From Oscillatoriales cyanobacterium (GTDB lineage: Bacteria > Cyanobacteriota > Cyanobacteriia > Cyanobacteriales > Laspinemataceae), in the NCBI GenBank assembly GCA_011390955.1, contig JAABRM010000072.1, positions 1 through 34,742 on the forward strand: a DNA stretch of 34,742 nt, written 5' to 3'. A program made the position numbers and the translations under genes. Shown in pieces: positions 7,743 to 32,366 of this stretch (positions are counted from its first letter, which is position 1; every line of letters begins with the position of its first letter). Under the pieces are notes generated by a model. It made no database searches. It was not told the DNA's origin and saw only the letters and a list, made by a program, of their open reading frames with translations.

Positions 7743-7751
7743 TCTTCGGTG

Positions 7752-7776: not shown

Positions 7777-7865
7777 ATTTACTCCTATAAAAACCCCAAA
7801 ATTATTGCCAGCCTAACACCCCCTACCAGCATCCATAGCCACATCAGCCACATCCTATTATTCTC

Positions 7866-9041
7866 ATGTTTGACTTACTCGATCGCCAAATTACCCATTA
7901 TCAAAAAGCCCTGCTGATTAAGCCCGATAACCCTAAAGTTTACTATCACTTAGGAGAGATATGGGAAAAGTTAGAACAGTGGGAAAAGGCGATCGCTTGT
8001 TATCTACAAGTAATTTCTTTGTACAGAGAAACCAGTCAAATTAAGGATATTTTTGCTAAAGCTTATATCCAATTAATCGAGATTAGAGAAAAATGTCCGA
8101 TCGACCAAGCAATTCGGATATACCGTAAATTCGTTGATAAGTACCCGGATTTTTTAATTGCCCATGTTGGCTTGGGAGACTTATTGACTCAACAAGGAAG
8201 CTTAGAAGCGGCTATATATTCTTACAAAAATACAAGTTATCAGCAGCTTTTAGGTTCCCATCCTGAGTTTGTCAAAAATTATTGGCATCCCCAGAATCCC
8301 CGTCAACCCCATTTCTTAATTATTGGCATTGGTAAAGGCGGAACCAGTTCGCTCTATCATTACCTGGTAAAGCATCCGCAAATTTTGCCAGCGATTAAAA
8401 AAGAAACATTGTTTTTCACCGAAAACATCTCTCAAGGATTAGACTGGTATTTAGCACATTTCCCACCAATTCCTAAAGGCGCTGATGTTTTCACTGGAGA
8501 AGCGACTCCTTGGTATCTAGTGAGTTTCGACGTTGAAAAACAAGTTGCTAAATTATTTCCTAACATCAAAATAATCACCCTGTTGAGAAATCCCGTATTT
8601 CGGTCATTTTCTCACTATCAAATGCAACGGAGACTGGGAAAAGAGCATCGGTCATTTGCTGAGGCAATTTCCTCGGAGATGGCAGCGATGAACAAGTTAT
8701 CGTCTCTGGGAAATCCCGATCGCAACTATTGGCAGACAGAAAAAGGTTGTTTATTGTTTAGCCTATACGTTTACTTTATTGAAAAATGGATGGCTGTATT
8801 TCCCTGGGAACAGTTTTTAATTTTAAAGAGTGAAGACTTTTATGCCAATCCAGCAGCCACCCTGACCCAAGTTTTTGAGTTTTTGGGAGTGCCGGATTAT
8901 CCCCTACCAGAATATCCAAATTATAATCCGGGATCGTACAATCCCATCAGTGATGATTTGCGGCAGACTTTAGCCGATTTTTTCCGACCCCACAATCAGA
9001 AGTTAGAGGAATATTTGGGGATGAAATTTGATTGGGATTAA
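7866..9041 (+). CDS. TPR-sulfotransferase fusion protein
   Basis: 391 residues with ATG at 7866. Residues ~1-125 are degenerate TPRs (HYQKALLIKPDNPKVYYHLG, AIACYLQVISLYRE). From ~148 a sulfotransferase domain follows: FLIIGIGKGGTSSLYHYL holds the 5'-phosphosulfate loop of PAPS-dependent enzymes (IGKGGTSS 155-162), and LLRNPVFRSFSHY (239-251) is the 3'-phosphate-binding segment. The C-terminal LILKSEDFYANPAATLTQVF and FEFLGVPDYPLPEYP are also typical. It would transfer sulfate from PAPS to a glycan or related acceptor; the acceptor is unknown. A paralogue with the same architecture lies at 20271-21563. The stop codon sits inside a 31-base direct repeat. Confidence 0.9.
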   Translation: MFDLLDRQITHYQKALLIKPDNPKVYYHLGEIWEKLEQWEKAIACYLQVISLYRETSQIKDIFAKAYIQLIEIREKCPIDQAIRIYRKFVDKYPDFLIAHVGLGDLLTQQGSLEAAIYSYKNTSYQQLLGSHPEFVKNYWHPQNPRQPHFLIIGIGKGGTSSLYHYLVKHPQILPAIKKETLFFTENISQGLDWYLAHFPPIPKGADVFTGEATPWYLVSFDVEKQVAKLFPNIKIITLLRNPVFRSFSHYQMQRRLGKEHRSFAEAISSEMAAMNKLSSLGNPDRNYWQTEKGCLLFSLYVYFIEKWMAVFPWEQFLILKSEDFYANPAATLTQVFEFLGVPDYPLPEYPNYNPGSYNPISDDLRQTLADFFRPHNQKLEEYLGMKFDWD

Positions 9042-12753: not shown

Positions 12754-15169
12754 TGGTTCTCCGGGATATCTCTTCTGCCGCTAGAGGAATTTCGCCAACA
12801 TTGCCAAACATTTCTCTAGCTTTAATCAATTCCTGTTTAGCTTGGTCTATATCTCCTAAATAAATAAAAGCCATCACTTTAGCCGCCGCAATATTCGGAC
12901 GTAATTTATCGTGACAAATTTGCAACGAGTAGGCAAAAGCCTGATGCACATCTTCCGTAGAAAATATACTAAACGGCGGATTTAAATCTAAAATTAAAGT
13001 ATCCTTGGGTAAGGGCTTAACATATTGAAACACTGCCGCTTGGTAGAGATTGCAATAATGTTTGAAGTATGGCCTCAGTTTGTAAATCAACAGATGGATC
13101 CAAGCCGTGGCATAATGAGCGAAATCATTATAATGAACTAAAGAAGTCATCGGCATTAGATGGGGATAAAAATTTAAGAAAATGCTTTTGGTCAGTTCCC
13201 AGCTTTTCATCGCATCCACAAATAAATATTCGATCGCCCCACCGTTCCAACCAATCTCCGTCACATCTCCCGGATAAACTTTTATCGAGTGACTCCAGGG
13301 GCTAATTCTGCGAGTAAATTCATCTAAAAAGCTATCTCCCGGTTGATATTGACCTTCCAGAGAAGTCCCTTTTACCGTTCGTTCCATATATGGATGCCAA
13401 GTAAATAAGTCATAAGCGTGAATCCGTTTATATTTCAGGGCAACCTGACGATTTCTTTCTAATCCCTTAGCCAGAGAAATAGTTGCCGACCCTAACCAAC
13501 ATCCTAAATCAATGATTTCCCCTTGACCGGAATAAATATTTTCGCCATAATCTTGCAAGAAAATCTGCTCTTGATCTGAGGTCATCCCCAATAACCGAGA
13601 ATAGGATTCTGGGCTAGATAGCTGCTGTTTAGTGACAGTTCCTTGAGTAAAAGCTTGTTTCATATACTCTAGCCGTTGGTTCAGCAAAGATTGATTCACT
13701 GCTGCCAAAAACTCTGGTTTAGCAACAACGGGAATTTCAGGATAAACCTCGATCGCATTAGCAATTTCTGCTGCTAGAGATTGGGAGTTTCCCGATTCAA
13801 ACCATCGCACCTTATCCGATCCGGTTCCCCCCTTATTTATCCCCCTCCCGTCCCCCTTTATCCCCCTCCCGTCCCCCTTTGAAAGGGGGAAGCCAGCGGA
13901 ATAATTTTTTGTTGTCCGGGGGGTTAGGGGGGATCGCCCAATTAAGTTTAAGGTTTCTCGAAAGCCTCCAGTATCTGAGACCACCAAACTCACGGGTAAT
14001 TGTCCCATTTCTAAGGCACTATTGGGAAAGTTTTCTTGGGGACTGGTCAGGCAAACAATTGCCGGGGCTAATTCTTGCACCAGGGCGATCGCTTCCTGGC
14101 TAAATAAGTCCGAGATGATGGTATAATTAAATTTATTATTAAGTTGTTGCTCGATATATTGTTGACTGTCCTGTTTATCGAGTTTCGGGGCATGAAGGGT
14201 GACAGTTTTCCCTAAAAATAACAGGTAAAGTTGCTGGCTAATTTCCTCATCGGCAAATTGCTGGGTAATATGCGCGATCGCCTCCAAAAACGTCAGCAGT
14301 CCTTTCCGTTCTTCCAAGCGACCAAAAAAGACGATCGGGATTTGTTGCCGTTTAAGATTCAAACCAACCCGGTCTAACATCGGTCGTTTTTTATCCAAAA
14401 GTGGCGCGATCGTAAAACAGTAGGGCAAATGAATGGCATGGGTCATGTTCCAGCCATAACTTTTCACTTTTTCCGCCATAAACCAAGACAGGAAAAAGGC
14501 TAAATCGGCATTTTCAAAAGAATATTGCTCGTAGCTATACACCTTTTGATACCAATCCCAGGCGGGATATAAGCTATATTTTTCATGGGCTTCATTTAAC
14601 CACTCTTGACCGCTGTGCATCGTCACCGCTGTCACGCAATTTTTTCTCAACAAACCCGCACGTTTGGCTTGAATTGTCCGATATCCCAGTCCGCACAAAT
14701 CGGGAAATTCCACATAAATAGGAGACTGGCTAAAATGATTGGCGATCGCCTGGACAAAAAACAGAATTCGATAACTTTCTGACTCCACCCATTCCCATTG
14801 CTGAAACCCCGATAAAATCCCTTGGTGAATCTGCTGTAACTGCAAAATCTTTTCCGCTTCATGGGTAGAAAAAATATGGCGAACCGGGGCAACCGTAGAT
14901 TCTCCCTGAAACTCTTTTTCCGTTTTACAGAGAATTAAAATAATATATGCCCCTTCACTGGATAATTTTTCGCTCAAGGTTTTATAATAAGTGCCAATGC
15001 CGCCATTCTTGAAAATACCTTCATATTCTGAAGTCACCAAAATCGCCACATTTTCCGGATCTGGTGATAATTTTTCATCGAAGGTTGCTTGAAAGCGGAC
15101 AGTAAACTCCTTCTCCCAATCCTTTGTCAAAATGTTTGTTTTCGCGAGCAATCTTTGCTGATTCATCAT
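12749..15169 (-). CDS. Glycosyltransferase (GT4) fused to SAM-dependent methyltransferase
   Basis: 806 residues with ATG at 15167-15169. Residues ~40-505 are a GT4 domain clearly paralogous to the neighbouring gene: SEYEGIFKNGGIGTYYKTL, VFFGRLEERKGLLTFLEAI, and ENFPNSALEMG with E379 and E387. Residues ~520-740 are a class I methyltransferase of TylF/MycF-like type: EIIDLGCWLGSATISLAKGL (SAM loop 554-560), then VKVYPGDVTEIGW and YLFVDAMKSWELTKSIF. A helical, TPR-like tail follows. The protein would add and methylate a sugar in one polypeptide; substrates are unknown. Residues 412-450 are a repeat-derived insertion absent from the paralogue. The TAG stop lies inside a REP palindrome. Confidence 0.88.
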   Translation of the reverse strand: MMNQQRLLAKTNILTKDWEKEFTVRFQATFDEKLSPDPENVAILVTSEYEGIFKNGGIGTYYKTLSEKLSSEGAYIILILCKTEKEFQGESTVAPVRHIFSTHEAEKILQLQQIHQGILSGFQQWEWVESESYRILFFVQAIANHFSQSPIYVEFPDLCGLGYRTIQAKRAGLLRKNCVTAVTMHSGQEWLNEAHEKYSLYPAWDWYQKVYSYEQYSFENADLAFFLSWFMAEKVKSYGWNMTHAIHLPYCFTIAPLLDKKRPMLDRVGLNLKRQQIPIVFFGRLEERKGLLTFLEAIAHITQQFADEEISQQLYLLFLGKTVTLHAPKLDKQDSQQYIEQQLNNKFNYTIISDLFSQEAIALVQELAPAIVCLTSPQENFPNSALEMGQLPVSLVVSDTGGFRETLNLIGRSPLTPRTTKNYSAGFPLSKGDGRGIKGDGRGINKGGTGSDKVRWFESGNSQSLAAEIANAIEVYPEIPVVAKPEFLAAVNQSLLNQRLEYMKQAFTQGTVTKQQLSSPESYSRLLGMTSDQEQIFLQDYGENIYSGQGEIIDLGCWLGSATISLAKGLERNRQVALKYKRIHAYDLFTWHPYMERTVKGTSLEGQYQPGDSFLDEFTRRISPWSHSIKVYPGDVTEIGWNGGAIEYLFVDAMKSWELTKSIFLNFYPHLMPMTSLVHYNDFAHYATAWIHLLIYKLRPYFKHYCNLYQAAVFQYVKPLPKDTLILDLNPPFSIFSTEDVHQAFAYSLQICHDKLRPNIAAAKVMAFIYLGDIDQAKQELIKAREMFGNVGEIPLAAEEISRRTM
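13820..13936. repeat. In-frame repeat insertion in the GT4-methyltransferase gene
   Basis: A G/C-homopolymer-rich block with duplicated CCCCTCCCGTCCCCCTTTAT units and a CCCCCTTTGAAAGGGGG palindrome. It encodes about 39 residues (FPLSKGDGRGIKGDGRGINK region) between RETLNLIGR and KVRWFE. The paralogue reads straight across from RETLNLISR to VRWFQ, so the block is an insertion. Confidence 0.85.
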
Positions 15170-18665: not shown

Positions 18666-19763
18666 TTAGAACACCTCAAAATCATCGATGGTGATATTCA
18701 GATTAGGATTGAGTTGAAGCAATTCCATCTCATCCCCTTGTTCTTCATTGGGATTGTAATACACCCGACCTGTGGTGGGGTCGTAGATGATTTTTGCCGC
18801 AGTTCTGGACTGTTGGGGGTCAAAATTAGCAATGATTTCAACTTCACCGGATTCGATCGCATCACCGAGGGAGGCAAAAATTCTTTTGTCCAACTGAATC
18901 TTATCTTCTCCGGGATTAAAGTCAGTAATCGTATCCACCCCCAAAGGATTTGCTCCCACTTCTTCTGCGGTCTGCAATGGGCCTTGCTGGACAAAATACT
19001 CGAAGCGGAAAACATCTGCCCCCGAACCGCCGGTCACGGTATCGTGACCCGCATCCCCGGATAGGGTGTCATTGCCATCACCGCCGAAGACGCGATCGTT
19101 GCCCTGACCGCCATAAACGCGATCGTCGCCAGAACCCCCATCAACGGAATCATTGCCCTGGTTGCCACCGACCGTATCATTGCCATCATCGCCGCTAACC
19201 TGGTCATCGCCTTGACCGCCACTCACCGTATCGGCGCCATCACCACCGGAAACGCGATCGTTCCCTAAATCGCCAAACAGTAAGTCATCCCCATCATCGC
19301 CACTAACGGTGTCATCTCCTTTACCGCCATATCCCGTGTCGTTGCCACCTCCTAAGCTGACTCGATCGTTCCCTTGATTGGCCTCAATGCGATCGTCTCC
19401 ATCACCCGTATTGGCAATGTCATCACCACCGAGGAGTTGGGCAAAGTCATCGGTACTTCCCAGGTTTAACTCATCGAACAGCTCCGTGAGACGAGTTTGC
19501 GAGGGGGATGCCGATGAAAAATTAACTCCTATATCCTGATTTGACGTATCTACAGTCAAGCCACCGGCATCGTTATTAGATGCGATGATTCCCAATTGGG
19601 CTAAACGTTCTAAAACGGGATTGCTGAAGTTTTCATTGTCACCTGTGTTGCTGCCACCTGTGTTCCCGGAACTGTCAGAGTCATCAAGGGAAGTAGGAAG
19701 GCCGAACGGACTAACCGTTGAGGGGTTTACCGGCGCTACTGGTAATAATGTATTATATGACAT
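18666..19763 (-). CDS. RTX-type calcium-binding protein, probably type I secreted
   Basis: 365 residues with ATG at 19761-19763. Residues 1-115 are Ser/Asn/Thr/Gly-rich with no signal peptide. Residues 119-253 hold about 15 glycine/aspartate nonapeptides of the GGxGxDxhx type (GGDGADTVS, GGQGDDQVS, GGDGNDTLS), which form a calcium-bound parallel beta-roll outside the cell. Residues 254-365 are a conserved tail (NPLGVDTITDFNPGEDKIQL, ending DDFEVF), the expected place of the uncleaved type I secretion signal. No catalytic motif is seen, so an adhesin or surface-layer role is plausible but unproven. No type I transporter genes are in the window. A remnant duplicate of the tail is at 921-1289. 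Confidence 0.9.
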   Translation of the reverse strand: MSYNTLLPVAPVNPSTVSPFGLPTSLDDSDSSGNTGGSNTGDNENFSNPVLERLAQLGIIASNNDAGGLTVDTSNQDIGVNFSSASPSQTRLTELFDELNLGSTDDFAQLLGGDDIANTGDGDDRIEANQGNDRVSLGGGNDTGYGGKGDDTVSGDDGDDLLFGDLGNDRVSGGDGADTVSGGQGDDQVSGDDGNDTVGGNQGNDSVDGGSGDDRVYGGQGNDRVFGGDGNDTLSGDAGHDTVTGGSGADVFRFEYFVQQGPLQTAEEVGANPLGVDTITDFNPGEDKIQLDKRIFASLGDAIESGEVEIIANFDPQQSRTAAKIIYDPTTGRVYYNPNEEQGDEMELLQLNPNLNITIDDFEVF

Positions 19764-20222: not shown

Positions 20223-20270
20223 ATCTAATAGCTACATCTAATAGTTGCCCCATTTTTGTCCCAACCCACT

Positions 20271-21563
20271 ATGAATCTTTTCACTCCAACCTCAACAAAT
20301 ATCCCACAACAGACCCAAACCCTCATCGACCATTATCAAAAAGCCACTCTCATCAAACCCGACTCGGCAACCCTCTATCAAGATATTGGCAATCTTTACC
20401 GAAGTTTACTCGATTTTGAACCAGCCATCGTTTATTATCTGAAAGCCATTGAACTCAAACCCGACCTATTTTCAGTCTATTCTCCCCTGAACTTCCTGCT
20501 ACAATTCATCTGTTGGTCGAGCGAACAGAACAAAAATCAGATTCTTACCCAAGGCATTCATATCCTCAAACAGAATATCATCAACCAACCCAATTTTCCC
20601 TTTGCTCATGTCGTTTTAGGCAGACTCTATGCCCAACAAGGAGAAATAGAAACAGCCAAAGACTGCTATCAAAAAGCTAGTTTTAAACAAATTAACCGTT
20701 CCTATCCTGACCTCATCCAACATTGGAATTCCTCAACTAAACGCCAGCCCGACTTTCTCGTAATTGGCTTATTCAAGTGTGGCACGACCTCTTTTTATAG
20801 CTATCTCATCCAGCATCCACAAATTTTACCCGCCGTCACCAAAGAAATTCGTTATTTTTCCAATTATCCTATCAACGACTTAGAGTATTATCTTTCTCAT
20901 TTTCCAGCAATATCCAATAATAACTATCTCACGGGTGAAGCTACCCCAAATTATTTTCCATTTCCCAACGTAGCCCAACAAATAAAAGATTGGTTTCCCC
21001 AGATAAAGCTCATCCTCTTACTGCGAAACCCTATTGAACGAGCAATTTCTGGCTTTTACTGGGGTAATAAATTTACTTATCAATACTTGAATAAATCCCT
21101 CAATGGCATTCATCACTTAGATATAGACCTTGTACAAGAGAAAATTGCTAACATCAAAGAAAAACAGAAACTCTCGCTCCATAAAAGGATTGAATCAAGA
21201 AATCAGTGGCTTGATTGTTTAAGAGATATCTGGAGACCAAACTCAGATATCAACCATGAAATCGCCTTTCATATTGCTTCTAGTCTCTATCTTGACTATC
21301 TCCCCGAATGGTTTAGGGTTTTCCCTAAAGAGCAAATCTTAATCCTCAGAAGCGAAGACTTATTTACTGACCCAGCAACCACTATGAAACAAGCCTATGA
21401 TTTCCTCGGTCTTCCTGACCATCCCCTGACCGAGTATCGTAACGCTAATCGTAACAAATATCCTCCGATTTCCCCTAGCTTACATCAACAACTCGCTGAC
21501 TTTTTCCGACCCTATAACCAAGAGTTGGAAGACTATTTACACAGGAAATTTCATTGGGATTAA
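20271..21563 (+). CDS. TPR-sulfotransferase fusion protein (second copy)
   Basis: 430 residues from ATG at 20271; an in-frame TTG five codons upstream (20256) is a weaker alternative. Residues ~15-140 are TPR-like (HYQKATLIKPDSATLYQDIG, AIVYYLKAIELKPD). The sulfotransferase domain starts at ~160: FLVIGLFKCGTTSFYSYL has the PAPS 5'-phosphosulfate loop (FKCGTTSF 168-175), and LLLRNPIERAISGFYWG (249-265) is the 3'-phosphate segment. LILRSEDLFTDPATTMKQAY and the FRPYNQELEDYLHRKFHWD end match the paralogue at 7866-9041, including the final WD. A ~55-residue Lys/Gln-rich stretch after the RNP motif is longer than in the paralogue. The acceptor is unknown; sulfated polysaccharide is the likely context. 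Confidence 0.9.
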   Translation: MNLFTPTSTNIPQQTQTLIDHYQKATLIKPDSATLYQDIGNLYRSLLDFEPAIVYYLKAIELKPDLFSVYSPLNFLLQFICWSSEQNKNQILTQGIHILKQNIINQPNFPFAHVVLGRLYAQQGEIETAKDCYQKASFKQINRSYPDLIQHWNSSTKRQPDFLVIGLFKCGTTSFYSYLIQHPQILPAVTKEIRYFSNYPINDLEYYLSHFPAISNNNYLTGEATPNYFPFPNVAQQIKDWFPQIKLILLLRNPIERAISGFYWGNKFTYQYLNKSLNGIHHLDIDLVQEKIANIKEKQKLSLHKRIESRNQWLDCLRDIWRPNSDINHEIAFHIASSLYLDYLPEWFRVFPKEQILILRSEDLFTDPATTMKQAYDFLGLPDHPLTEYRNANRNKYPPISPSLHQQLADFFRPYNQELEDYLHRKFHWD

Positions 21564-21729: not shown

Positions 21730-24700
21730 CTACCCCTGACTGTAAAATCGCCTGCGAATAATCTCCGCCAATCGATCGCGGTGTTGCTCGGATTTAATCT
21801 GATTCAATTCTGCGGTTTTTTGGGACAATTCAGCTTGAAATTCTTCTAGGAGAGCTTGGGCTTGCTGCTGTTGTCGTTCAGATATTTGTAATTGAATTTG
21901 GGTTTGTTGTAGCTGTTGTTGAGATTGCTCTAATTCGGCTTGGGTTTGCTGTAATTGCGTGCGATCGCGCTCTAATTCGGCTTCGGTTTGCTGTAATTGG
22001 GTGCGATCGCATTCTAATTCGGCTTGGGTTTGCTGGTGTTGGGTTTGGGTGGTTTGCAATTGTTTTCGCAGGTGTTCGAGTTCCGCTTGGGTTTGGGAAT
22101 AGTCCTCTTTTAAGGTGGCTAATTCCGTGGTTTTTTGGTGCAGTTGTTCGTTGGCTGCGGTTAACTCTCCTTGCAGTTGACTGCGGGACTGTTCCAGGTG
22201 GGTTTGGAGGGTGGCGAGTTCGGTTTTGAGGCGGGGAATGGCGCGATCGGGATGCAGGGGGTCGAGTTTTTCGGCGATCAGTTCGAGGGTGAGGGGGTCA
22301 TAGGTGTAGGGTTCGGTTTTGATCAGGGTTACGCCGTCGCCTTGGGGTTTTTCGCCAAAAAGAGAGCGTTCATAGAAGTTGTCATCCACTTCATAAATTT
22401 CGATTTGATGCATGCCACTTTCTATTGAAGCAGCGTGAATACAGTATAGTGGTGCATCTTTTGGAATAATAATTAGACAGGTAGGAGCCACCCTTTCAAC
22501 ATTACCCTCATTTGGAGATGCTCCGTGAACTAATCGCCGATCAAAAAGAACTGCTTGACCCGCCTTGAGAGGGACATAGGTTAAGTAGTTTTGCTCGATA
22601 TATGATTGCACTTCCCGATCGAAAGGTAAGCCCGGTTGAGTGTAAGCACGTTTTCTAGGTAGCAACTTATGACTTCCTTTGACAAGACAGATACAACTAT
22701 TTTCGATCTCAACATCACTAAGTGGAGTCCAAATTCCGAGACAGGCGTACAGCGATTCATCAGTAAAAGATGGATCTTGGTGCAAGTTAAGAGATTTATT
22801 ATTAGCATGGGGCGGACGACGAGTCCACGGACAAAAAAGAGTTCGATAGCCAGGTAGTATTAAATCTATTTTAGGAGCGGCAATCATCTTGAAGTAACCT
22901 TCTAAATCTTGCCGATACGATAGGTCAGATGAGAGAAGACTGATAGGCGGTTTGTCTGAATTTACCAGATCCTCTGGTAGCGGATGGGCACGATCGAACT
23001 CCCGTAAATCCTCCAATTCATCAGGGGTTAAAAAGTTTTCCAGCACCACATAACCCTCCGTCTCTAGCTGCTGCTGCATGGCTAGTGTTAACGGCGCGAC
23101 ATTGCTAGGAGTCGGATGGGGTGCTTCAGGAGTGGAGGGGGTGGGGTTGGGCATGGGCGTAAATCCGGCTTTGATGACCTGGAATAGTTCTGTGGTGCGA
23201 ACCTTTATCGACGGGTAGAACAACAGTGCGGTGAGTGCCACAAAGATGAGGAATTGGGGATTTTGCACCGCCAGGGTGATGGCGAGGGCAAGGGGTAGCC
23301 AGACTTCATAGAGGTCGTGGGGGATGATGTTTTGATTTTTGGGTGGGGAGGGGGTGAAGGGATGGGGGGCGGTTTTGATGTTGACGGCGGTGAGGAGCAG
23401 ATAGACGGCAAAAAAGGCGGTTAAGGCGGGGGTGGATTGGCACAGCAGCAGGGCGACCCCACTGAGTAAGAGGAGTTCAACGGGGAAGACGAGGCGGTTT
23501 ATCCACCGTTGGACGGTTTCGGGAGGGCGTTGAGTGACAAAGGTGGTGATTCCCGCGTTGAGGTCATTGGCGCGATCCCAGAGTTGGTGCAGCAAAATGC
23601 CGCGCAGCCCGACGAAAAAGGCATGGGCGGCGGCAACTCCGGTGAAGAGGAGGGCGTTGCGGGGTGGGTCGGGGGTGTGGCTGAGGAGGGGGGCAGCGAC
23701 GAACAGGGTGGGGACGAGGTGCGCTCCGGCAGCATCGCTGAGGATGCCCCAGATGCCCCGTTCTTTCAGGCGCAGGGGTGGGACGGAGTAGAGGGTGGGG
23801 AGCAGGTAGTTGGCGGCGAGGAGGGCGAGGGGAATAGTGCCGAGGTGGGTGAGGAGGGGGGCAGCGAAGCCAATGCCCAGGAAGAGGAGGCAGAGGAGAA
23901 GGCGTTGCCAGGGTTGGAGGTTGGCGGCGGCGTTGGGTTTGTTGGCTTTTTGGTCGGTTTCGATGTCGCAAATGTCGTTGAGGAGGTAGCCGTAGGCGGC
24001 AACGGAGGCAATAGAGAGGAGGGCGGTGAGGGTGGTGAGGGTGGCGGTTGTGGGGGGGAGTTGGAGAAGGAGGGTTTCGGCGTAGGCAATGGTGAGGAGG
24101 GGCGCGATTTTGTAGAGCCACCATTCTTGCGATCGGATTAACCGTGCAAAATCCACGCCCGTTTTTTCCTGTCGCGATCGTTGATGTTTAAGTTTTTTCT
24201 GCCTTGCAACCAGGGCCATCCTTTGTCTTTCGTGTTGGGGATATTTGACAATCTCAACCTGCTCGAAATATCTCTCAAACAGAGTAATCATGTATTCTGG
24301 ATGGGGAGCAATCAGGTTTAAGTGTTGTTTTGTCCGATCCTTTTCAATCCAACTCCAAATAATTCCTTCAAATTGATAAACTCCAACGCCATCGGCTCTC
24401 CCTTCGCTGGTGTAGGGTAACTTTATTTCTCCCGATCCCAGTTCACTAGGATGGAAGATGGGAACAAAGCAAATACCGCGATCTGATGTCCAGCTTACAA
24501 AGTTCTCCACAACTGTCTCAAACTCTGCCAGGGATTTGACATAGCAGTAAGCCCACCACATACAAGAAACTAAGTCCCACTTGCCTTCCCACTCTGGTCG
24601 CTTATCTCTGTAGTCACCTTGAATAAGCGGGATGTTAGGATTGGCTTGTCTGGCAGTTTCCAGCATTGCCGGGGAAATATCTAAACCCGCCCGTTCCACC

Positions 24701-24963
24701 TCTGGAAAGCAGCCTAAAAAGTAGCCCGTCCCGCAAGCTACATCGAGCCATCGGGGATTGTCGCCGATTTCGTCTAGAAGTTGGGCAATGGTTTCCCGCT
24801 CAAAGTCAGCATCGATTTTTGATAGGTCGTTGAGTAGGAAGCGTTGGTTGTAGTTTTGGGCGTAGTTTTGGTCATAAATTTCATGGATACGTTTATTATT
24901 GATGGTATATCTGGGTGCAATTAAATCCCAAAAAATTAGAAAATTGCGGATGTTCAACACCAT
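21730..24963 (-). CDS. Methyltransferase - UbiA prenyltransferase - PhyH dioxygenase fusion with coiled-coil tail
   Basis: 1077 residues with ATG at 24961-24963. Residues ~25-255 are a class I methyltransferase (WLDVACGTGYFLG, SAM loop 74-80; LDISPAMLE). Residues ~275-600 are a polytopic UbiA-family prenyltransferase with the first Asp-rich motif NDICDIETD (329-337) and a second DRAND (463-467) among hydrophobic segments. After a Pro-rich linker (600-622), residues ~625-860 are a PhyH-type Fe(II)/2-oxoglutarate oxygenase: YVVLENFLTPDELEDLREF, metal ligands H728-x-D730 and H813, and R824 for the cosubstrate. Residues ~905-1077 are Gln/Glu-rich coiled coil. The catalytic residues of all three domains look intact. 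It would be anchored in the membrane by UbiA. Substrate unknown; a prenylated or polyprenyl-linked product that is then methylated and hydroxylated is an inference. Confidence 0.85.
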   Translation of the reverse strand: MVLNIRNFLIFWDLIAPRYTINNKRIHEIYDQNYAQNYNQRFLLNDLSKIDADFERETIAQLLDEIGDNPRWLDVACGTGYFLGCFPEVERAGLDISPAMLETARQANPNIPLIQGDYRDKRPEWEGKWDLVSCMWWAYCYVKSLAEFETVVENFVSWTSDRGICFVPIFHPSELGSGEIKLPYTSEGRADGVGVYQFEGIIWSWIEKDRTKQHLNLIAPHPEYMITLFERYFEQVEIVKYPQHERQRMALVARQKKLKHQRSRQEKTGVDFARLIRSQEWWLYKIAPLLTIAYAETLLLQLPPTTATLTTLTALLSIASVAAYGYLLNDICDIETDQKANKPNAAANLQPWQRLLLCLLFLGIGFAAPLLTHLGTIPLALLAANYLLPTLYSVPPLRLKERGIWGILSDAAGAHLVPTLFVAAPLLSHTPDPPRNALLFTGVAAAHAFFVGLRGILLHQLWDRANDLNAGITTFVTQRPPETVQRWINRLVFPVELLLLSGVALLLCQSTPALTAFFAVYLLLTAVNIKTAPHPFTPSPPKNQNIIPHDLYEVWLPLALAITLAVQNPQFLIFVALTALLFYPSIKVRTTELFQVIKAGFTPMPNPTPSTPEAPHPTPSNVAPLTLAMQQQLETEGYVVLENFLTPDELEDLREFDRAHPLPEDLVNSDKPPISLLSSDLSYRQDLEGYFKMIAAPKIDLILPGYRTLFCPWTRRPPHANNKSLNLHQDPSFTDESLYACLGIWTPLSDVEIENSCICLVKGSHKLLPRKRAYTQPGLPFDREVQSYIEQNYLTYVPLKAGQAVLFDRRLVHGASPNEGNVERVAPTCLIIIPKDAPLYCIHAASIESGMHQIEIYEVDDNFYERSLFGEKPQGDGVTLIKTEPYTYDPLTLELIAEKLDPLHPDRAIPRLKTELATLQTHLEQSRSQLQGELTAANEQLHQKTTELATLKEDYSQTQAELEHLRKQLQTTQTQHQQTQAELECDRTQLQQTEAELERDRTQLQQTQAELEQSQQQLQQTQIQLQISERQQQQAQALLEEFQAELSQKTAELNQIKSEQHRDRLAEIIRRRFYSQG

Positions 24964-25081: not shown

Positions 25082-26095
25082 TCATTCTTCAATCATTTTT
25101 TTTATCCGTTCTACAAGCAATTCACCAATTCCTTTGCCAGCATTTATTGCTGCATCTCTTGGTTCTGGATTCATGAATTTATACTGATTCTTTGCTAGGA
25201 ACCACCCAAGTTTAGATAGAAAGCGTAGTCTCTCTGGAATGTGTTCCATTCCCCGTTCATGCATCGTTTGCATACCATCTATATCTTCCCCTGACAAACG
25301 AGGGAAATTTTGTCCTGTTCGCGCTTCTACTGTCACGTTACGAAACGTAGCAAACATATCCCGCATCTGTTGTGTGTTTATAGGGTCAGCAGATTGGAGC
25401 ACCTTAGTTGGGATCTTTTTGAAAAGAAAATCTTTTAGTCCACCACGTTGAATATATCGACATTGAGCCTTTTTAAGGCATTCATTATTACTCTGTTGCC
25501 CCACATGAGTCAACTCATGGGCCAACAACCCCTGCCCCTCCCTCGACCCCGGCTCATACTCCCCCTTTGCAAAAAACACATCCCGCCCCGCCGTAAACGC
25601 CTTCGCCTGAATACTCCGACTCAACCGATCCGCCGCCCCATCCGTATGCACCCGCACCCCACCAAAATCCTGCCCCATCAACGGCTCAACCCGCGCCCGA
25701 AACGCCCCATCCAACCGCTGACCGCCCCCCCGCGCTGCCCGTAACCCCCGCTCAAACTCCGGCGTAGCCTCCCCAGCAACCCCACCCCCAACCCGCCGCA
25801 CCGGACTAAAGGCCCGGTCTCGTAAACTCGGCACAACCTCCCGTTGCACCGTCCCCTCTGGTATAGGCTCCTGCAACCCCTGCACCACCTCCGCCGCCAC
25901 GCGATCCGCCTCCTGCTCATAACGGTCGTGGGGTTCCCCAATCGTCAAACGCTGCGCCTGCACCGGCAACCCCTGCACCGCCATCCCCGCCTCCGACTTT
26001 TGCTGCGGCGGCATCGCCACCGGATGCCCTGAACCGCCCTCGCGCTTTCGAGTGGGGAGAGGAATATGAGCCTTGCGTTTCACCTGAGCCTTCAT
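25082..26095 (-). CDS. DUF4157 (eCIS core domain) protein with HExxH motif
   Basis: 337 residues from ATG at 26093-26095, preceded by AAGGGTAAGG; the frame is open to 26176, but the ribosome-binding site favours the inner ATG. Residues 1-50 are basic and Pro/Gly-rich. Residues ~50-201 are DUF4157: IGEPHDRYEQEADRVAAEV, VRVHTDGAADRLSRSIQAKA, and LLAHELTHVGQQ with the zinc-type HELTH at 193-197. DUF4157 proteins are frequent in extracellular contractile injection system (eCIS) loci. The remaining 136 residues match nothing I recognise and are encoded by much more AT-rich DNA than the N-terminal part, suggesting C-terminal exchange. It lies 153 bases after an AAA+ gene typical of eCIS clusters. 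It could be a cargo or assembly factor; no tube, sheath or baseplate gene is in the window. Confidence 0.85.
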   Translation of the reverse strand: MKAQVKRKAHIPLPTRKREGGSGHPVAMPPQQKSEAGMAVQGLPVQAQRLTIGEPHDRYEQEADRVAAEVVQGLQEPIPEGTVQREVVPSLRDRAFSPVRRVGGGVAGEATPEFERGLRAARGGGQRLDGAFRARVEPLMGQDFGGVRVHTDGAADRLSRSIQAKAFTAGRDVFFAKGEYEPGSREGQGLLAHELTHVGQQSNNECLKKAQCRYIQRGGLKDFLFKKIPTKVLQSADPINTQQMRDMFATFRNVTVEARTGQNFPRLSGEDIDGMQTMHERGMEHIPERLRFLSKLGWFLAKNQYKFMNPEPRDAAINAGKGIGELLVERIKKMIEE

Positions 26096-26248
26096 CGTGA
26101 CCTTACCCTTAAAATTTGCCCTAATTTTACCGCCAATCCCCCAATATATCGAACACCCCCGTCCATTCGTTACCATTCTTCACAATCCCCCCGTAGGGTG
26201 CGCCATTGCGGTGATAATGTGGGGAAAAAAATCGGTCGCACCTACAAT

Positions 26249-28201
26249 CTACTGTTTCTGTTGCTTAACCCAGCCATTAATTTCATTACTTGTCAAACTG
26301 CGTTGTAACTTAAGGCATTCCCGTCGGGCGGCCTGGAGAATATGTTTCATCATCACAGGTTCATCTGCACCTGCCGCAAAAAACGCTGCATTCAAAGCAA
26401 TATTGCGAATATTTCCCCCCGGCATCTGTAGCTGTCCCAGTTTCTGATAATCTAACCCTTGGGTGGGAGTTTTAGCTGGGAAAGCCCGCCGCCAAATTTC
26501 CATCCGTTGTTCCTGTGCCGGAAACGGAAACTCGACAATAAAACGAATCCGGCGTAAAAAGGCATTATCTAAAGCATTTTTCATATTCGTCGTCAAAATC
26601 GCTAATCCTTGATAGGCTTCCATCCGTTGTAGTAAATAACTAACTTCTACATTCGCATGACGATCGCGGCTGTCTCTTACCTCCGTGCGCTTGCCAAACA
26701 GAGCATCCGCTTCATCAAACAAAAGAATCGCACCCCCCACCGCCGCTGCATCAAAAATTTGAGCTAAATTCTTCTCGGTTTCCCCAATATACTTACTGAT
26801 GGTCGCACTGAGGTCAATCCGATAGAGATCGAGATGAAACTGTTGGGCCAACACTTCAGCCGCCAAGGTTTTTCCCGTCCCGCTTTGCCCATAAAATAGG
26901 GCGGTCATCCCCAAGCCGCGACTCCCTGACTCCATAAACCCCCAGTCGTGATAAACCTTTGACCGATATTGCAGTTGGGTCGCCAATTCAGCAAGCATCT
27001 CCCGTTGCAAATCCGGTAGTACCAAGTCTTCCCATTTTCCCCGACTGGTGATGCGCTGGGCGAGATGGTCGAGACGGGGGCGGGCTTGAGTACGACAAGC
27101 CTGCCAAAGGGCAGAGGCAAGGGGTTCGTCCGGATGAGCTTGAGCGCGATCGCAAGCGGCTTGAATGTCCATCGCGGACAGATCAAACTGAGCAGTCAGT
27201 CGGGTCATCTCGCCATTGAGTTCCGTGGCTGCTGTACCCAGATGAGTTTCCCAAAGTTCCTGTTGTTCTCCACGATTCAGGAACGGAACATCAAAACAGA
27301 TAACAGGACGTTGGGGAAAAAACAAGCGGTTTTGACTGCTGAGAATTGCAGGAGTCTGGAGGGTTTTTACCCAAAGGGATAAAGTGTGAAAGCGGCTGGT
27401 ATCTTCTGGGTTGAGGGAGTCACTGTCAATGAGAAGTAGGCGATCGCTCAAAATAGCCTCCCGTTCCCATCGTCGCCGCAGTTGGTCAAGATCCTGGGGG
27501 TCTGTGGGTAAACTGGCTGCATCGAGAATGCCAAACGAAAAGCCCAAGGTGGAACAGACTTGGGTAACGAGTTGGTACTTTGTGGTGAAGTTAGAACCAC
27601 ACAATTGCAAAATCGGCAATCTATCTTTGGACTGAGACCAAGTGGCGATAATTTGCTCGGCAACTTTGGCTTGAGAGGGAGAGAGGAAACAATCTTGCGG
27701 TTCGGGAAACTGGCATAAGCCCGTCAATCGTTCATCGATCGCAGCTTCCCCTAAAAGATAGCAGAGGATACGGGGGTCAAGGCGCATGGCCGCTTGAGTG
27801 AGGCTAAAACTGGGGGCAAATTCGAGCATTTGCCAAGCTTGCAAGGGATTTTGCGGAGAAAGTACCGACCAAGAGGCATGAGGAAAAATGCTCAAGGCTA
27901 ACCCAAGCGTAGGATAATTTTGTTGGCTATCTCCTTGGATTTTGGCACAGAGAAGAGGAATAGCGCGATCGAGTTCTGAACCGAGAGCCAGTAAGAGGAT
28001 ATCTCGTTCAAAGGGGGAAAGGTCAAATTTACGGACAAGTGCGGCGAAAGGTGTGGTTTCTGAAAGGTTGGAAGGAGGTGAAGCGAGGGGATTGTTTCCC
28101 GATATGGTATTTTCTAAGCATTGATGGAGGCGATCGAGTTCTTGCTGAAGGCTATGCCAGTTTTTTTGATACCAACTGGGTTTGTCATTAGAGACTTTCA
28201 T
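26249..28201 (-). CDS. AAA+ ATPase, eCIS-associated type
   Basis: 650 residues from ATG at 28199-28201; the frame is open to 28261, giving 20 more hydrophobic residues, so the start is uncertain. The N-terminal ~190 residues are helical. Residues ~190-320 resemble a degenerate AAA domain lacking a Walker A lysine in the usual context (LCGSNFTTKYQL, then LLLIDSDSL). Residues ~385-640 are an active AAA+ module: Walker A GQSGTGKT (438-445), Walker B AILLFDEADALFG with D496/E497, sensor-like LTTN and an arginine-finger RRIRF. This double layout matches ATPases found in contractile-injection-system loci (Afp15-like family). It is the first gene of the AAA+/DUF4157/fusion run. A role in assembly or cargo loading is inference. 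Confidence 0.87.
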   Translation of the reverse strand: MKVSNDKPSWYQKNWHSLQQELDRLHQCLENTISGNNPLASPPSNLSETTPFAALVRKFDLSPFERDILLLALGSELDRAIPLLCAKIQGDSQQNYPTLGLALSIFPHASWSVLSPQNPLQAWQMLEFAPSFSLTQAAMRLDPRILCYLLGEAAIDERLTGLCQFPEPQDCFLSPSQAKVAEQIIATWSQSKDRLPILQLCGSNFTTKYQLVTQVCSTLGFSFGILDAASLPTDPQDLDQLRRRWEREAILSDRLLLIDSDSLNPEDTSRFHTLSLWVKTLQTPAILSSQNRLFFPQRPVICFDVPFLNRGEQQELWETHLGTAATELNGEMTRLTAQFDLSAMDIQAACDRAQAHPDEPLASALWQACRTQARPRLDHLAQRITSRGKWEDLVLPDLQREMLAELATQLQYRSKVYHDWGFMESGSRGLGMTALFYGQSGTGKTLAAEVLAQQFHLDLYRIDLSATISKYIGETEKNLAQIFDAAAVGGAILLFDEADALFGKRTEVRDSRDRHANVEVSYLLQRMEAYQGLAILTTNMKNALDNAFLRRIRFIVEFPFPAQEQRMEIWRRAFPAKTPTQGLDYQKLGQLQMPGGNIRNIALNAAFFAAGADEPVMMKHILQAARRECLKLQRSLTSNEINGWVKQQKQ

Positions 28202-28309
28202 AAACTTTTGACAAATTAAAAGATACACCTTTTGGAACATACTAAGCCTAATCAGACCCAAGGCAAAGAAATAAATGATTAAGAATTGACTCCTTTGTCT
28301 GAATACTTA

Positions 28310-28421: not shown

Positions 28422-28487
28422 ATCCCATTGATTCTCTTTATTCAACCTTTAAAAAAGCGCGATCGCCACCAGACAGCCCAATTGCCA

Positions 28488-28763
28488 ATGCCCACTCACT
28501 CCCACACCCAAGCCGTTCTCAACCACTACCAAAAAGCCTTAACCTTCTGCCCCCAAACCGCGAAGATCCAAGAACGTATTGCTTGCCTTCACTGGATGCT
28601 CTGGGATATTCCCCAGGCAATGGAACATTACCTCCGAGCAAAGGCGCTCAATCCCCAGGCACAATGGCATCATCGGCAATTATACTTTAGCCTTCAACAC
28701 CTTGCTCGTCAAAAATCCCCTAGACTCCTCGAATTTTGCGATCGCATTATTGGCAGACCCTGA
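28488..28763 (+). CDS. Short TPR protein, probable relic of a TPR-fused transferase
   Basis: 91 residues from ATG at 28488 (the frame is open upstream to 28428). HTQAVLNHYQKALTFCPQTA and AMEHYLRAKALNPQAQWHH form one to two TPR units resembling the N-termini of the two TPR-sulfotransferases (HYQKALLIKPD, HYQKATLIKPD). No enzymatic domain follows: the frame ends at 28763, shortly before a decayed toxin gene on the other strand. It is most likely the stump of a third TPR-transferase gene, though a small adaptor cannot be excluded. Confidence 0.6.
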   Translation: MPTHSHTQAVLNHYQKALTFCPQTAKIQERIACLHWMLWDIPQAMEHYLRAKALNPQAQWHHRQLYFSLQHLARQKSPRLLEFCDRIIGRP

Positions 28764-30600: not shown

Positions 30601-32262
30601 ATGACCTTTTCCACCCTCGTTCACCTCCTACAAACTCGCGCCCACCAGCAGCCCAACCAACTCGCCTACACTTTCCTCAAAAACGGCAAAACCCCCACCA
30701 GCCAACTCACCTATCGCCAACTCGACCAAAAAGCAAAAGCGATCGCCGCCTACCTACAAATTCAACTCTCACCAGGGTCTAGAGTTCTCCTCGTTTATCC
30801 CCAAAGTATTGATGCGATCGCCGCCCTGTTTGGTTGTCTTTATGCCGGAGTCATCGCCATTCCAGCCCCAGCCCCAGACACCACCCGACTCAAACGCACC
30901 TTACCCAGACTAGAAGCGATCGCCACTGATGCCAATGCCTCTCTCATCTTAACCACCCACAACCAACTCACTCGCCCAAACCCCGCCCTCACCTTTCAAG
31001 CCAAAAGCTTTGTCAGCCGACTCAACGGCAGCCCCTCACTCTTCCTTCACTACACCCTACAAAACCACCCGCAACTGGCTACCCTCCCTTGGACAGCTAC
31101 CGATAAAATTCCTCTCCACTTCGCCCACCACTGGCAAAACCCCCAAATCGACGGCCATACCCTCGCCTACCTGCAATATACCTCCGGTTCAACCTCCACC
31201 CCCAAAGGCGTGATGCTTGACCACCATAACCTCATCAGCCATTTAGCCGAACTGCAACAAGCAGGGGGTTACGACTCCCACAGCATCACCGTCACTTGGA
31301 TGCCCTATTTTCACGACTACGGCTTAGTTGAGGGCATTCTCCAACCCCTGTACAACGGCACGCCCTGTTATTTAATGTCCCCAACCGCCTTCATCAAATC
31401 CCCGCAACGCTGGCTAGAAGCCATTTCCCACTACCGCGCCACCCACAGCCAAGCCCCCAACTTTGCCTACGCCTATTGCGTGCAGCGCATCACCCCCGAA
31501 CCAGCAACCCTCGATCTCAGCCATTGGCAAGCCGCCGGAAATGCCGCCGAACCCATCAATCCCCAAATTTTAGAGCAATTCTGCCAAAGGTTTCAGCCTT
31601 GGGGGTTTCGTCCCCAAACCTTTGCCCCTGCCTACGGACTGGCAGAAGCCACCTTATTAGTCACCACCAGCCGGAAATCCCAGAGTCCCCTATGCTGCAC
31701 GGTTTCTCAGGAAGCCTTGAGCCAAAATCGCTTTGTGGAAACGGCGATCGGACAAAAACTAGCAAGTTCCGGTCGTTTGTTGGACAATACCCAAGTGGCG
31801 ATCGCCCATCCTGACACCTTAACCCGTTGTCAGCCCGATGAAATCGGGGAAATTTGGGTCGCCAGTGCCGGAGTAGCGCGGGGGTACTGGCAACGGTCTG
31901 ATGTCACCAAAAACACTTTTCAGGCTTACCTCAACGATACGGGAGAAGGGCCTTTTCTGCGATCGGGGGATTTAGGCGCGATTCACAATGGGGAATTATT
32001 TGTGACGGGTCGCCTCAAAGATTTAATTATTGTTCGCGGTGAAAACTACTATCCCCAAGATATTGAATGGGTGGCAGAAAAAAGCCATCCAGCATTGCGT
32101 CAGGGTTATGGGGCAGCATTTGCCGTTGATGTTGATGGGGTAGAACAACTGGTAATTGCCTTTGAGGTTGCCCGTAAAACCCCCAATCTCAAGGATATAG
32201 TAGATGCCATTCTGCGATCGCCGAACAGTTTGAATTATCCCTTTATGGGGTCGTCCTCCTAG
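30601..32262 (+). CDS. Fatty acyl-AMP ligase (FAAL), 3' part shifted out of frame
   Basis: 553 codons with ATG at 30601. It is an adenylate-forming ligase: YTSGSTSTPKGVMLDHHNL from 193 is the ATP loop, WMPYFHDYGLVEGILQPLYN is the FAAL-type substrate segment, and RSGDLGAIHNGELFVTGRLK, then DLIIVRGENYYPQDIEW form the hinge region. FAALs activate fatty acids as acyl-AMP and load them on carrier proteins. The last ~15 residues (RSPNSLNYPFMGSSS) do not fit the family. The expected end (AEQFELSLYGVVLLERGSIL, then KTSSGKIQRQACRKAF) is in another frame from about 32214 and runs straight into the carrier-thioesterase coding region. A one-base deletion near 32212 explains this. It was probably one gene, 30601-33374. 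Confidence 0.87.
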   Translation: MTFSTLVHLLQTRAHQQPNQLAYTFLKNGKTPTSQLTYRQLDQKAKAIAAYLQIQLSPGSRVLLVYPQSIDAIAALFGCLYAGVIAIPAPAPDTTRLKRTLPRLEAIATDANASLILTTHNQLTRPNPALTFQAKSFVSRLNGSPSLFLHYTLQNHPQLATLPWTATDKIPLHFAHHWQNPQIDGHTLAYLQYTSGSTSTPKGVMLDHHNLISHLAELQQAGGYDSHSITVTWMPYFHDYGLVEGILQPLYNGTPCYLMSPTAFIKSPQRWLEAISHYRATHSQAPNFAYAYCVQRITPEPATLDLSHWQAAGNAAEPINPQILEQFCQRFQPWGFRPQTFAPAYGLAEATLLVTTSRKSQSPLCCTVSQEALSQNRFVETAIGQKLASSGRLLDNTQVAIAHPDTLTRCQPDEIGEIWVASAGVARGYWQRSDVTKNTFQAYLNDTGEGPFLRSGDLGAIHNGELFVTGRLKDLIIVRGENYYPQDIEWVAEKSHPALRQGYGAAFAVDVDGVEQLVIAFEVARKTPNLKDIVDAILRSPNSLNYPFMGSSS

Positions 32263-32366
32263 AACGAGGCAGTATTCTCAAAACCTCTAGCGGGAAAATT
32301 CAACGCCAAGCCTGCCGAAAAGCGTTTCTCGTAGGGGTTGATGGCATCAACCCTTGGGAGACTCTG

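What the first reader, a model, noticed from the sequence alone, without database searches (positions are those of the whole stretch)
21730..24963. Three-enzyme fusion: SAM methyltransferase, UbiA prenyltransferase and PhyH oxygenase in one 1077-residue protein
All three domains keep recognisable active-site motifs: DVACGTG, NDICDIETD plus DRAND, and HxD...H...R. They are followed by a long Gln/Glu coiled coil. I do not know of a described pathway using this architecture. A membrane UbiA core flanked by a methylase and a 2-oxoglutarate oxygenase suggests a dedicated enzyme that makes and tailors an isoprenoid-linked metabolite. The UbiA portion (about 23100-24120) is strikingly G-rich on the plus strand compared with its flanks, hinting that this domain was acquired separately.
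Basis: partly seen in the sequence, partly recalled or inferred. Interest (0 to 1): 0.75.

Follow-up and report, generated by a model that had tools for sequence, protein, structure and literature searches.

The report
Fused methylase–prenyltransferase–oxygenase of cyanobacteria
One cyanobacterial protein really does fuse a methylating enzyme, a membrane enzyme that attaches isoprenoid chains, and an oxygenase; it belongs to an apparently undescribed family of mix-and-match enzymes in gene clusters for sulfated, sugar-containing compounds.

Summary
Window 24963-21730 (minus strand) encodes 1077 aa: SAM methyltransferase, UbiA core, PhyH oxygenase, coiled coil. Neither chance nor an assembly join: three relatives share the architecture (L038, L040, L041), one on the complete Oscillatoria acuminata PCC 6304 plasmid, named there only 'phytanoyl-CoA dioxygenase'. 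Catalytic residues are conserved. The UbiA core belongs to a shuffled family: MT-UbiA-TPR, cyclase-UbiA, PhyH-UbiA-cyclase-TPR, UbiA-cyclase-PhyH-TPR-MT, up to 1556 aa; the cyclase resembles class II terpene cyclases. Elsewhere these are separate nearby genes. Neighbours include sulfotransferases, glycosyltransferases and often Wzm/Wzt exporters. Family-mean hydropathy suggests ten membrane helices instead of nine, putting the added domains on the cytosolic side. DNA identity along the gene is blocky (UbiA mostly 86-96%, PhyH 47-65%): modules were swapped. Best reading: a membrane enzyme that prenylates, methylates and hydroxylates a precursor, probably sugar-containing, of a sulfated glycoconjugate. 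Substrate and product are unknown.

The parts
21730..24963 (-). whole gene, 1077 aa: MT-UbiA-PhyH-coiled coil
   Evidence: same architecture in L038, L040 (= L082, plasmid of O. acuminata PCC 6304), L041
24199..24876 (-). class I SAM methyltransferase domain (residues ~30-255); motif I DVACGTG at 24724-24744
   Evidence: Pfam; D74, G78, G80, D95 in 13 of 13 rows with this domain; closest solved relatives are aminosugar N-methyltransferases
23155..24156 (-). UbiA prenyltransferase core (residues 270-603), ten predicted membrane helices; motif 1 NDICDIETD 23953-23979, motif 2 DRANDLNAG 23551-23577
   Evidence: GC3 0.75
22279..23058 (-). PhyH Fe(II)/2-oxoglutarate oxygenase domain (residues 636-895); HQD 22774-22782, distal His 22525-22527, presumed 2OG-binding Arg 22492-22494
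   Evidence: Pfam; H728, D730, H813, R824 in 7 of 7 PhyH rows
21745..22239 (-). Gln/Glu-rich coiled coil, residues 909-1073, one predicted helix
   Evidence: weak hits to Rod_CreS and SMC models
20256..21563 (+). TPR-sulfotransferase, convergent neighbour
   Evidence: Sulfotransfer_1 58.9 bits; 40% over 445 aa to a gene of the O. acuminata plasmid
7866..9041 (+). second TPR-sulfotransferase
   Evidence: 57% over 397 aa to the plasmid gene
10248..12677 (-). glycosyltransferase (GT2- and GT4-type domains)
   Evidence: 74% over 803 aa to the plasmid gene
12749..15169 (-). glycosyltransferase, with a methyltransferase match below cut-off
   Evidence: 86% over 805 aa to the plasmid gene
30601..32262 (+). 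fatty-acyl-AMP-ligase-like AMP-binding part of a FAAL-ACP-thioesterase gene that is one ORF in relatives and broken here
   Evidence: 95% over 545 aa to the plasmid gene
32367..33374 (+). ACP-thioesterase part of the same broken gene
   Evidence: 89% over 385 aa to the plasmid gene

Best explanation
A membrane-bound three-step tailoring enzyme for an isoprenoid-bearing glycoconjugate. Shown: three catalytic modules with conserved motifs and a coil in one chain; the UbiA core belongs to a family whose partners (MT, PhyH, class II-type terpene cyclase, TPR) are exchanged between members or encoded near it; neighbours are sulfotransferases, glycosyltransferases, FAAL-ACP-TE and, in many relatives, Wzm/Wzt exporters. 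Inferred: the ten-helix UbiA core puts its active site, the N-terminal methyltransferase and the C-terminal PhyH and coil on the cytosolic face. The Asp motifs bind Mg2+ and a prenyl diphosphate, and the prenyl group goes to an acceptor head group, probably a sugar or sugar-linked nucleophile. The methyltransferase methylates and the PhyH domain hydroxylates the head group or prenyl chain without release from the membrane surface. The coil (TPR in many relatives) holds the enzyme to itself or to its TPR-bearing sulfotransferase partners. Where a cyclase replaces or joins the tailoring domains, the prenyl chain is also cyclised. Recombination at conserved blocks swaps the variable modules and so varies the product.
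For: Domains and motifs. Same architecture in three other genomes, one of them a complete plasmid. Alternative fusions. Separate-gene versions: MT beside UbiA in L068; cyclase, PhyH and UbiA in L066 and L067; UbiA, ABC exporter, an MT, PhyH and a sulfotransferase on the Methylomagnum plasmid. Class II cyclase identity: SHC 7.9e-13, drimenol synthase 1.2e-11, and weakly ent-CPS (0.0013) across the DxDD region; fold match to AsDMS and MstE from a low-confidence model. Neighbourhood, 28 stretches: sulfotransferase 20 (fragments counted), PhyH 17, MT 15, cyclase 11 (the gene's own domains counted), Wzm plus Wzt 16; six other UbiA loci of the window genome: 0 of 6 for each, though the Wzt model alone matched 2 of 6. 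Topology: ten peaks, mean K+R 2.3-5.5 in inner against 0.1-0.5 in outer loops, 28 sequences. UbiA's only PDB profile hit at E up to 0.01 is digeranylgeranylglyceryl phosphate synthase. MT nearest to aminosugar N-methyltransferases. Swapping.
Against: No substrate, product or expression data. No prenyl-donor gene beside the window gene: a polyprenyl synthetase probe matched 1 of 31 family stretches, and also 1 of 6 control stretches, so that association is not specific. The MT and sulfotransferase of the Methylomagnum cluster are not matched by the family's own MT and sulfotransferase models; they are the same only in broad class. The window genome has no match to the cyclase profile (without a positive control), and no Wzm/Wzt model match in the window; two Wzt_C matches lie on other contigs. 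PhyH matches are spread over phytanoyl-CoA, sugar, amino-acid and meroterpenoid oxygenases, so its substrate is open. The neighbourhood models were built from some of the same loci. Ten helices rest on hydropathy; at a fixed threshold single sequences give 6 to 10, ten in 13 of 30. The full-length structure model is unusable. Confidence was lowered from 0.45 to 0.42 on recheck because of the polyprenyl synthetase control.
Confidence: 0.42

Rival explanations
1. The UbiA module is a polyprenyl-phosphate phosphoribosyltransferase (DPPR synthase/PPPRS type): it loads ribose-5-phosphate from PRPP onto a polyprenyl phosphate to make a pentofuranose donor for an exported glycan, and MT and PhyH tailor that sugar.
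For: UbiA-family PPPRS enzymes do occur in glycan pathways (PMC11127046, passages read); this family sits in glycan clusters and its MT resembles sugar methyltransferases.
Against: The UbiA profile hits only digeranylgeranylglyceryl phosphate synthase in the PDB at E up to 0.01, not a DPPR synthase. NCBIfam's decaprenyl-phosphate phosphoribosyltransferase model gives 17.3 bits against a cut-off of 234 and ranks below general prenyltransferase, phytyltransferase and chlorophyll synthase models, none of which reaches its own cut-off. Terpene cyclase partners do not fit it. No phosphatase domain such as that of ORF15 showed in the Pfam scans.
Confidence: 0.13
2. WbdD-like chain terminator: the methyltransferase caps the growing glycan, the coiled coil acts as a molecular ruler coupled to the ABC exporter, and UbiA is mainly a membrane anchor.
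For: Methyltransferase plus long C-terminal coiled coil, and Wzm/Wzt in 16 of 28 stretches. The features of WbdD are recalled; only part of a reference title was seen.
Against: UbiA Asp motifs are conserved in 21 of 21 rows apart from one D330N, unlike a mere anchor. The coil is often joined or replaced by TPR. Several fusions show no methyltransferase (L062, L064, L024, L010, L083). No exporter match in the window and none in the (incomplete) gene table of the O. acuminata plasmid.
Confidence: 0.1
3. The UbiA module is a UbiA-type terpene cyclase making a free terpene without an acceptor, which MT and PhyH then decorate.
For: Intramembrane UbiA-type terpene synthases exist (search listing only, PMC9835599).
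Against: 11 of 28 stretches hold a separate or fused class II-type cyclase besides UbiA, as in the merosterol pathway, where a UbiA-like prenyltransferase and an SHC-like cyclase act (PMC5618424 passages). Glycan, acyl and sulfate neighbours suggest a conjugate.
Confidence: 0.1
4. Assembly join or decaying chimera without function.
For: Some relatives are broken (L009 truncated within UbiA), and the FAAL gene is broken in the window.
Against: Same architecture in three other genomes, among them a complete plasmid record; the gene lies about 10 kb from the nearer contig end; the catalytic residues checked are kept.
Confidence: 0.03

Closest known systems
WP_015163293.1, 'phytanoyl-CoA dioxygenase family protein', Oscillatoria acuminata PCC 6304 plasmid pOSCIL6304.01
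   Same: Same three domains and coil; 98% of the query covered at 64.6% identity; same kinds of neighbours (sulfotransferases, glycosyltransferases, FAAL, TPR)
   Different: Annotated by one domain only; one literature search for it found nothing
Merosterol (mst) pathway of cyanobacteria: UbiA-like prenyltransferase plus the monodomain class II cyclase MstE
   Same: 11 of 28 family stretches pair UbiA with a class II-type cyclase whose weak model matches MstE
   Different: Here domains are fused to MT, PhyH, coil and TPR in one chain and lie in glycan/sulfation clusters; the window genome gave no cyclase match; the acceptor is unknown
PPPRS/DPPR synthase and ORF15 of Citrobacter youngae (UbiA fold in glycan synthesis)
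   Same: UbiA fold fused to a soluble domain in a glycan pathway (passages)
   Different: Sequence is closer to isoprenoid-transferring UbiA enzymes; no phosphatase domain seen
IspH-UbiA fusions of sulfate reducers
   Same: UbiA fused to an enzyme thought to act in the same pathway, a 'Rosetta stone' protein (PMC4746011 passages)
   Different: Different partner; described there as a two-protein fusion
PDB 6ec3 (recalled as the methyltransferase-oxygenase EvdMO1 of everninomicin synthesis)
   Same: 6ec3, named a methyltransferase-domain protein, also matches the PhyH profile: a methyltransferase-oxygenase fusion
   Different: Recalled as soluble and without a UbiA domain; not tested

Membership tests
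UbiA prenyltransferase superfamily | Pfam UbiA above gathering score | tested here: met
   56.8 bits, cut-off 34.2
UbiA prenyltransferase superfamily | two Asp-rich motifs, NDxxDxxxD and DxxxD | tested here: met
   N329, D333, D337, D463, D467 in 21 of 21 rows; D330 in 20 of 21; the same five are listed as present in at least 27 of 28
UbiA prenyltransferase superfamily | nine transmembrane helices | tested here: inconclusive
   family-mean hydropathy gives ten; single sequences give 6 to 10; no usable structure
UbiA prenyltransferase superfamily | prenyl transfer to an acceptor | not testable with these tools
   needs an enzyme assay
PhyH Fe(II)/2OG oxygenases | HxD...H facial triad and 2OG-binding Arg | tested here: met
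   H728, D730, H813, R824 in 7 of 7; Pfam 69.5 bits, cut-off 22
class I SAM methyltransferases | motif I (DxxCGTG) and the acidic residue after strand 2 | tested here: met
   D74, G78, G80, D95 in 13 of 13; Pfam above cut-off
DPPR synthase/PPPRS | match to the DPPR synthase family model or structure | tested here: not met
   17.3 bits against cut-off 234; no PDB profile hit to a DPPR synthase
merosterol-type UbiA plus class II cyclase pathway | class II (DxDD) terpene cyclase partner | tested here: not met
   no profile match in the window genome (no positive control in that call); found in 11 of 28 family stretches
merosterol-type UbiA plus class II cyclase pathway | aromatic acid acceptor | not testable with these tools
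   no gene for aromatic acid synthesis was recognised among the neighbours annotated; this was not a systematic search
WbdD-type chain terminators (features recalled) | methyltransferase, kinase and coiled coil coupled to an ABC exporter | tested here: not met
   no kinase domain; no Wzm/Wzt model match in the window

The most novel reading that the evidence does not exclude
A previously unrecognised class of membrane megaenzymes, built by recombination from a constant ten-helix UbiA core and exchangeable methyltransferase, PhyH, class II terpene cyclase, coil and TPR modules, makes a variable, sulfated, exported terpenoid-glycan: an isoprenoid-based lipid anchor or cap for cyanobacterial surface polysaccharides, diversified like O-antigens.
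Probability: 0.25. Interest if true: 0.85.

Novelty: new variant of a known kind. Interest (0 to 1): 0.62.

Why it matters
Each catalytic module is known, but the searches made here turned up no description of UbiA fused to a methyltransferase and an oxygenase, or to a class II terpene cyclase with PhyH and TPR in one chain. If the function is right, these are single-chain terpenoid-tailoring enzymes whose variants are natural domain swaps, which helps with engineering and with predicting products. The repeated occurrence with Wzm/Wzt and sulfotransferases would link terpenoid chemistry to exported glycans and make the unknown lipid parts of cyanobacterial surface glycans testable. The O. acuminata plasmid offers a compact, named gene set to knock out or express.

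Tried and rejected
Structure of the whole protein: pLDDT 45, pTM 0.29 with a seven-sequence alignment; not used except for the coil. Fold model of the cyclase domain of L010: pLDDT 58.6 from two sequences; its matches are cited only beside the independent profile search.

Tree with the other UbiA genes of the genome: the first attempt used wrong ORFs for four of the six and its outgroup is discarded. The repeat has long branches, and own_L005 falls in an unresolved fork with family members, so no claim of a clean clade rests on it. The control (the family model finds none of the six at E 1e-8) is used instead.

TM counts on single sequences at a fixed threshold vary from 6 to 10; the family mean is the basis of the ten-helix claim. 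The shortened L008 and L009, the distant L027 and the duplicate L082 were left out of that mean.

Polyprenyl synthetase as a marker of the pathway: rejected as specific evidence, because its probe also matched one of six control loci.

Phage collection not searched: not relevant. Chloroflexi scan around L012 not done (one search gave an error). Literature: ten searches; no listed title described this architecture; only open PMC papers are held. Papers: passages seen of PMC11127046, PMC5618424 and PMC4746011; search listing only of PMC9835599 and PMC12365925.
Full report
1. The observation. The frame at 21730-24963 is open on the minus strand only: 1077 aa from an ATG at 24963. Pfam places three enzyme domains above their curated cut-offs: methyltransferase (73-152), UbiA (291-527), PhyH (718-824); a Gln/Glu coil follows. 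The composition claim is largely right: GC reaches 0.69 and plus-strand GC skew +0.54 over the UbiA part, though the coil part is G-rich too (skew about +0.35); GC3 is 0.75 in UbiA against 0.47 and 0.43 on either side.

2. Not chance and not an assembly join. Three other genomes carry the same four-part architecture: L038 (G633), L040 (G631), L041 (G639, a genome in one contig). L040 is the Oscillatoria acuminata PCC 6304 plasmid pOSCIL6304.01 (inferred from equal contig and record length, 64128 bases, and equal match scores), where the protein is annotated only 'phytanoyl-CoA dioxygenase family protein'. The window is a whole contig of 34742 bases, with the gene about 10 kb from the nearer end.

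3. A shuffled family. The UbiA core was sought in sampled genomes, the window's own counted in: 5 of 14 in the family, 17 of 388 in the order, 8 of 388 in the class, 5 of 386 in the phylum; samples overlap and thresholds differ. The two other genomes of the window's genus have no match, so the gene is patchy. Architectures: MT-UbiA-PhyH-coil (window, L038, L040, L041); cyclase-UbiA-coil (L010, Laspinema olomoucense; its far C-terminus is masked); MT-UbiA with coil and/or TPR (L011, L021, L022, L023, L042, L043, one gene of L061); PhyH-UbiA-cyclase-coil-TPR (L062, L064, L083 of Nostoc sp. C052); PhyH-UbiA-cyclase-PhyH-coil-TPR (L024, 1510 aa); UbiA-cyclase-PhyH-TPR-MT (L063, 1556 aa). Stand-alone UbiA genes: L012, L025, L026, L027, L065, L066, L067, L068, L069, L071, L084. 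L008 is cut by the stretch's end and L009 is truncated within UbiA, followed by a PhyH fragment with coil and TPR. In the tree the cyclase-UbiA gene L010 is sister to L040 (MT-UbiA-PhyH, support 100/97), and the cyclase-side UbiA of L061 lies inside the MT-UbiA-TPR group (100/99): partners have been exchanged around a common core. Long branches make the deep part of that tree unreliable, and the UbiA cores are themselves partly mosaic.

4. The cyclase partner. The ~350-aa toroid that is fused to or near UbiA in 11 of 28 stretches carries DxDD in 6 of 8 aligned copies (DxDT in one copy each of L069 and L071) and in the four fused copies read. Its profile matches class II terpene cyclases in the PDB: squalene-hopene cyclase 7.9e-13, drimenol synthase 1.2e-11, weakly AstC (0.00014), and ent-copalyl diphosphate synthase across the DxDD region (0.0013). 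A weak model matches drimenol synthase and MstE, the merosterolic-acid cyclase of Scytonema. PMC5618424 (passages read) states that a UbiA-like prenyltransferase and an SHC-like cyclase make a cyclised meroterpenoid in the cyanobacterial merosterol pathway. The window genome gave no match to the cyclase profile (without a positive control).

5. Separate-gene versions. L066 and L067 hold PhyH, cyclase and UbiA as separate genes with Wzm/Wzt; L068 holds a separate MT beside UbiA. The Methylomagnum ishizawai plasmid (L084) has polyprenyl synthetase, radical SAM, AsnB, UbiA, a glycosyltransferase-like gene, ABC permease and ATPase, a methyltransferase, PhyH, two transposases and a sulfotransferase in one stretch. 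Its UbiA and PhyH match the family models, but its methyltransferase and sulfotransferase do not, so they are the same only in broad class. The polyprenyl synthetase would fit a prenyl diphosphate donor, but the probe matched only this one of 31 family stretches (two of them the same locus) and also one of six control stretches.

6. Neighbourhood. In 28 stretches (25 genomes or records; many cut short by contig ends) models built from members of these loci found sulfotransferase in 20 (fragments counted), PhyH in 17, MT in 15 and the cyclase in 11 (fused or near), and Wzm with Wzt in 16. Six other UbiA loci of the window genome, 20 kb each, gave 0 of 6 for sulfotransferase, PhyH, MT, cyclase, FAAL and Wzm; the Wzt model alone matched 2 of 6. 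The models were trained on some of these loci, so the counts are favoured. Glycosyltransferases recur. The window shares with the O. acuminata plasmid two glycosyltransferases (74% and 86%), the FAAL-ACP-TE gene (95% and 89% for its two parts, broken in the window), TPR-sulfotransferases and TPR genes. No Wzm/Wzt match was found in the window and none is in that plasmid's incomplete gene table.

7. Topology. Averaged over 28 family sequences, hydropathy shows ten peaks; Lys+Arg average 2.3-5.5 in the inner loops and 0.1-0.5 in the outer ones. PMC11127046 (passages) gives nine helices for archetypal UbiA proteins, and the other six UbiA genes of this genome give eight or nine by a simple single-sequence method, by which 13 of 30 family members give ten and the rest six to nine. 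Ten helices would return the C-terminus to the cytosol, where PhyH would find iron and 2-oxoglutarate and where MT and the UbiA active site lie. This is inference from sequence.

8. Mosaic history. In 150-base steps against L038, DNA identity is 77-89% over residues 1-150, 61-64% over 151-250, 89-96% from 301 to 650, 47-51% over 651-850 (PhyH) and 80-86% from 851. Against L041 the UbiA C-terminal part drops to 52-80%; against L040 the 5' part of the gene is diverged and identity rises inside UbiA near the first Asp motif. At protein level L038 has UbiA 92% but PhyH 46%; L041 has coil 90% but PhyH 52%. So the second half of MT, probably its acceptor side, and the PhyH module were replaced between conserved blocks. 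The GC3 jump in UbiA (0.2 or more over the N-terminal domain) is present in the window, its six closest relatives and L022, and absent or smaller in L011, L042, L024 and L062 (12 genes examined): the composition belongs to some lineages of the core, not to all.

9. What the tailoring domains act on. The MT profile is closest to aminosugar N-methyltransferases: the best eight distinct sequences run from 1.5e-15 to 2e-11, then a step to 4e-8; several of the eight bear the same molecule name and look like variants of one enzyme, so they stand for about three enzymes (the names DesVI and TylM1 and the role of CalS10 are recalled). PhyH matches are mixed: phytanoyl-CoA dioxygenase, SnoK and EvdO2 (recalled as sugar-linked), ectoine hydroxylase, and PrhA/SptF (recalled as meroterpenoid oxygenases), with a weak match to TIGR04324 'sporadic carbohydrate cluster' oxygenase (29.7 bits, cut-off 150). 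PhyH is also fused to glycosyltransferases in L061 and L083 and to a methyltransferase in L026. A sugar head group is therefore likelier than a purely terpenoid target, but this rests on similarity of binding cores.

10. Mechanism and verdict. I commit to a cytosolic-face membrane enzyme that prenylates a (probably sugar-linked) acceptor and tailors it in place, within a pathway that adds sulfate, sugars and perhaps an acyl group, and in many relatives exports the product. Domain content, conserved motifs, family, neighbours and mosaicism are shown; donor, acceptor, order of steps, topology and export are inferred. The phosphoribosyl rival is weakened, the chain-terminator rival by conservation of the UbiA motifs and by members without MT. 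Each module is known; the fusion and the shuffled family are a new variant of a known kind as far as the open literature searched shows.

Noticed in passing
window 30601-33374: FAAL-ACP-thioesterase gene is one ORF of 925-942 aa in L008 and the O. acuminata plasmid but is broken into two overlapping frames here.
   Followed up: partly
window 28428-28763: N-terminal remnant of a TPR-sulfotransferase, 79% identical over 101 aa to the plasmid's sulfotransferase.
   Followed up: no
window 25082-28261: An eCIS_core protein and an AAA ATPase lie directly upstream; L022 has an AAA-like gene of the same cluster beside its UbiA gene.
   Followed up: no
window 2959-3477: Array of near-identical repeats inside the TPR gene 1975-4596, giving the peptide repeat DSRFRGNDITVKSN on one strand and VIPAKAGIHKLH on the other.
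   Followed up: no
window 23509-24141 (+) and 23564-24124 (-): Long overlapping open frames inside the GC-rich UbiA module, most likely by-products of its composition.
   Followed up: no
window 921-1289 and 18666-19763: Two ORFs share a C-terminal stretch; both match the 'calcium-binding protein' of the O. acuminata plasmid.
   Followed up: no
L061, two UbiA genes at 6354-8108 and 12945-15164: The C-terminal parts of the two UbiA cores are identical in the alignment while the N-terminal parts differ, suggesting gene conversion.
   Followed up: no
L012 (Chloroflexi MAG): Wzm/Wzt, UbiA, two P450s, a DxDD cyclase-like gene and a sulfotransferase-like gene in one run, a set resembling the one predicted for sulfated sponge meroterpenoids in PMC5618424.
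   Followed up: partly
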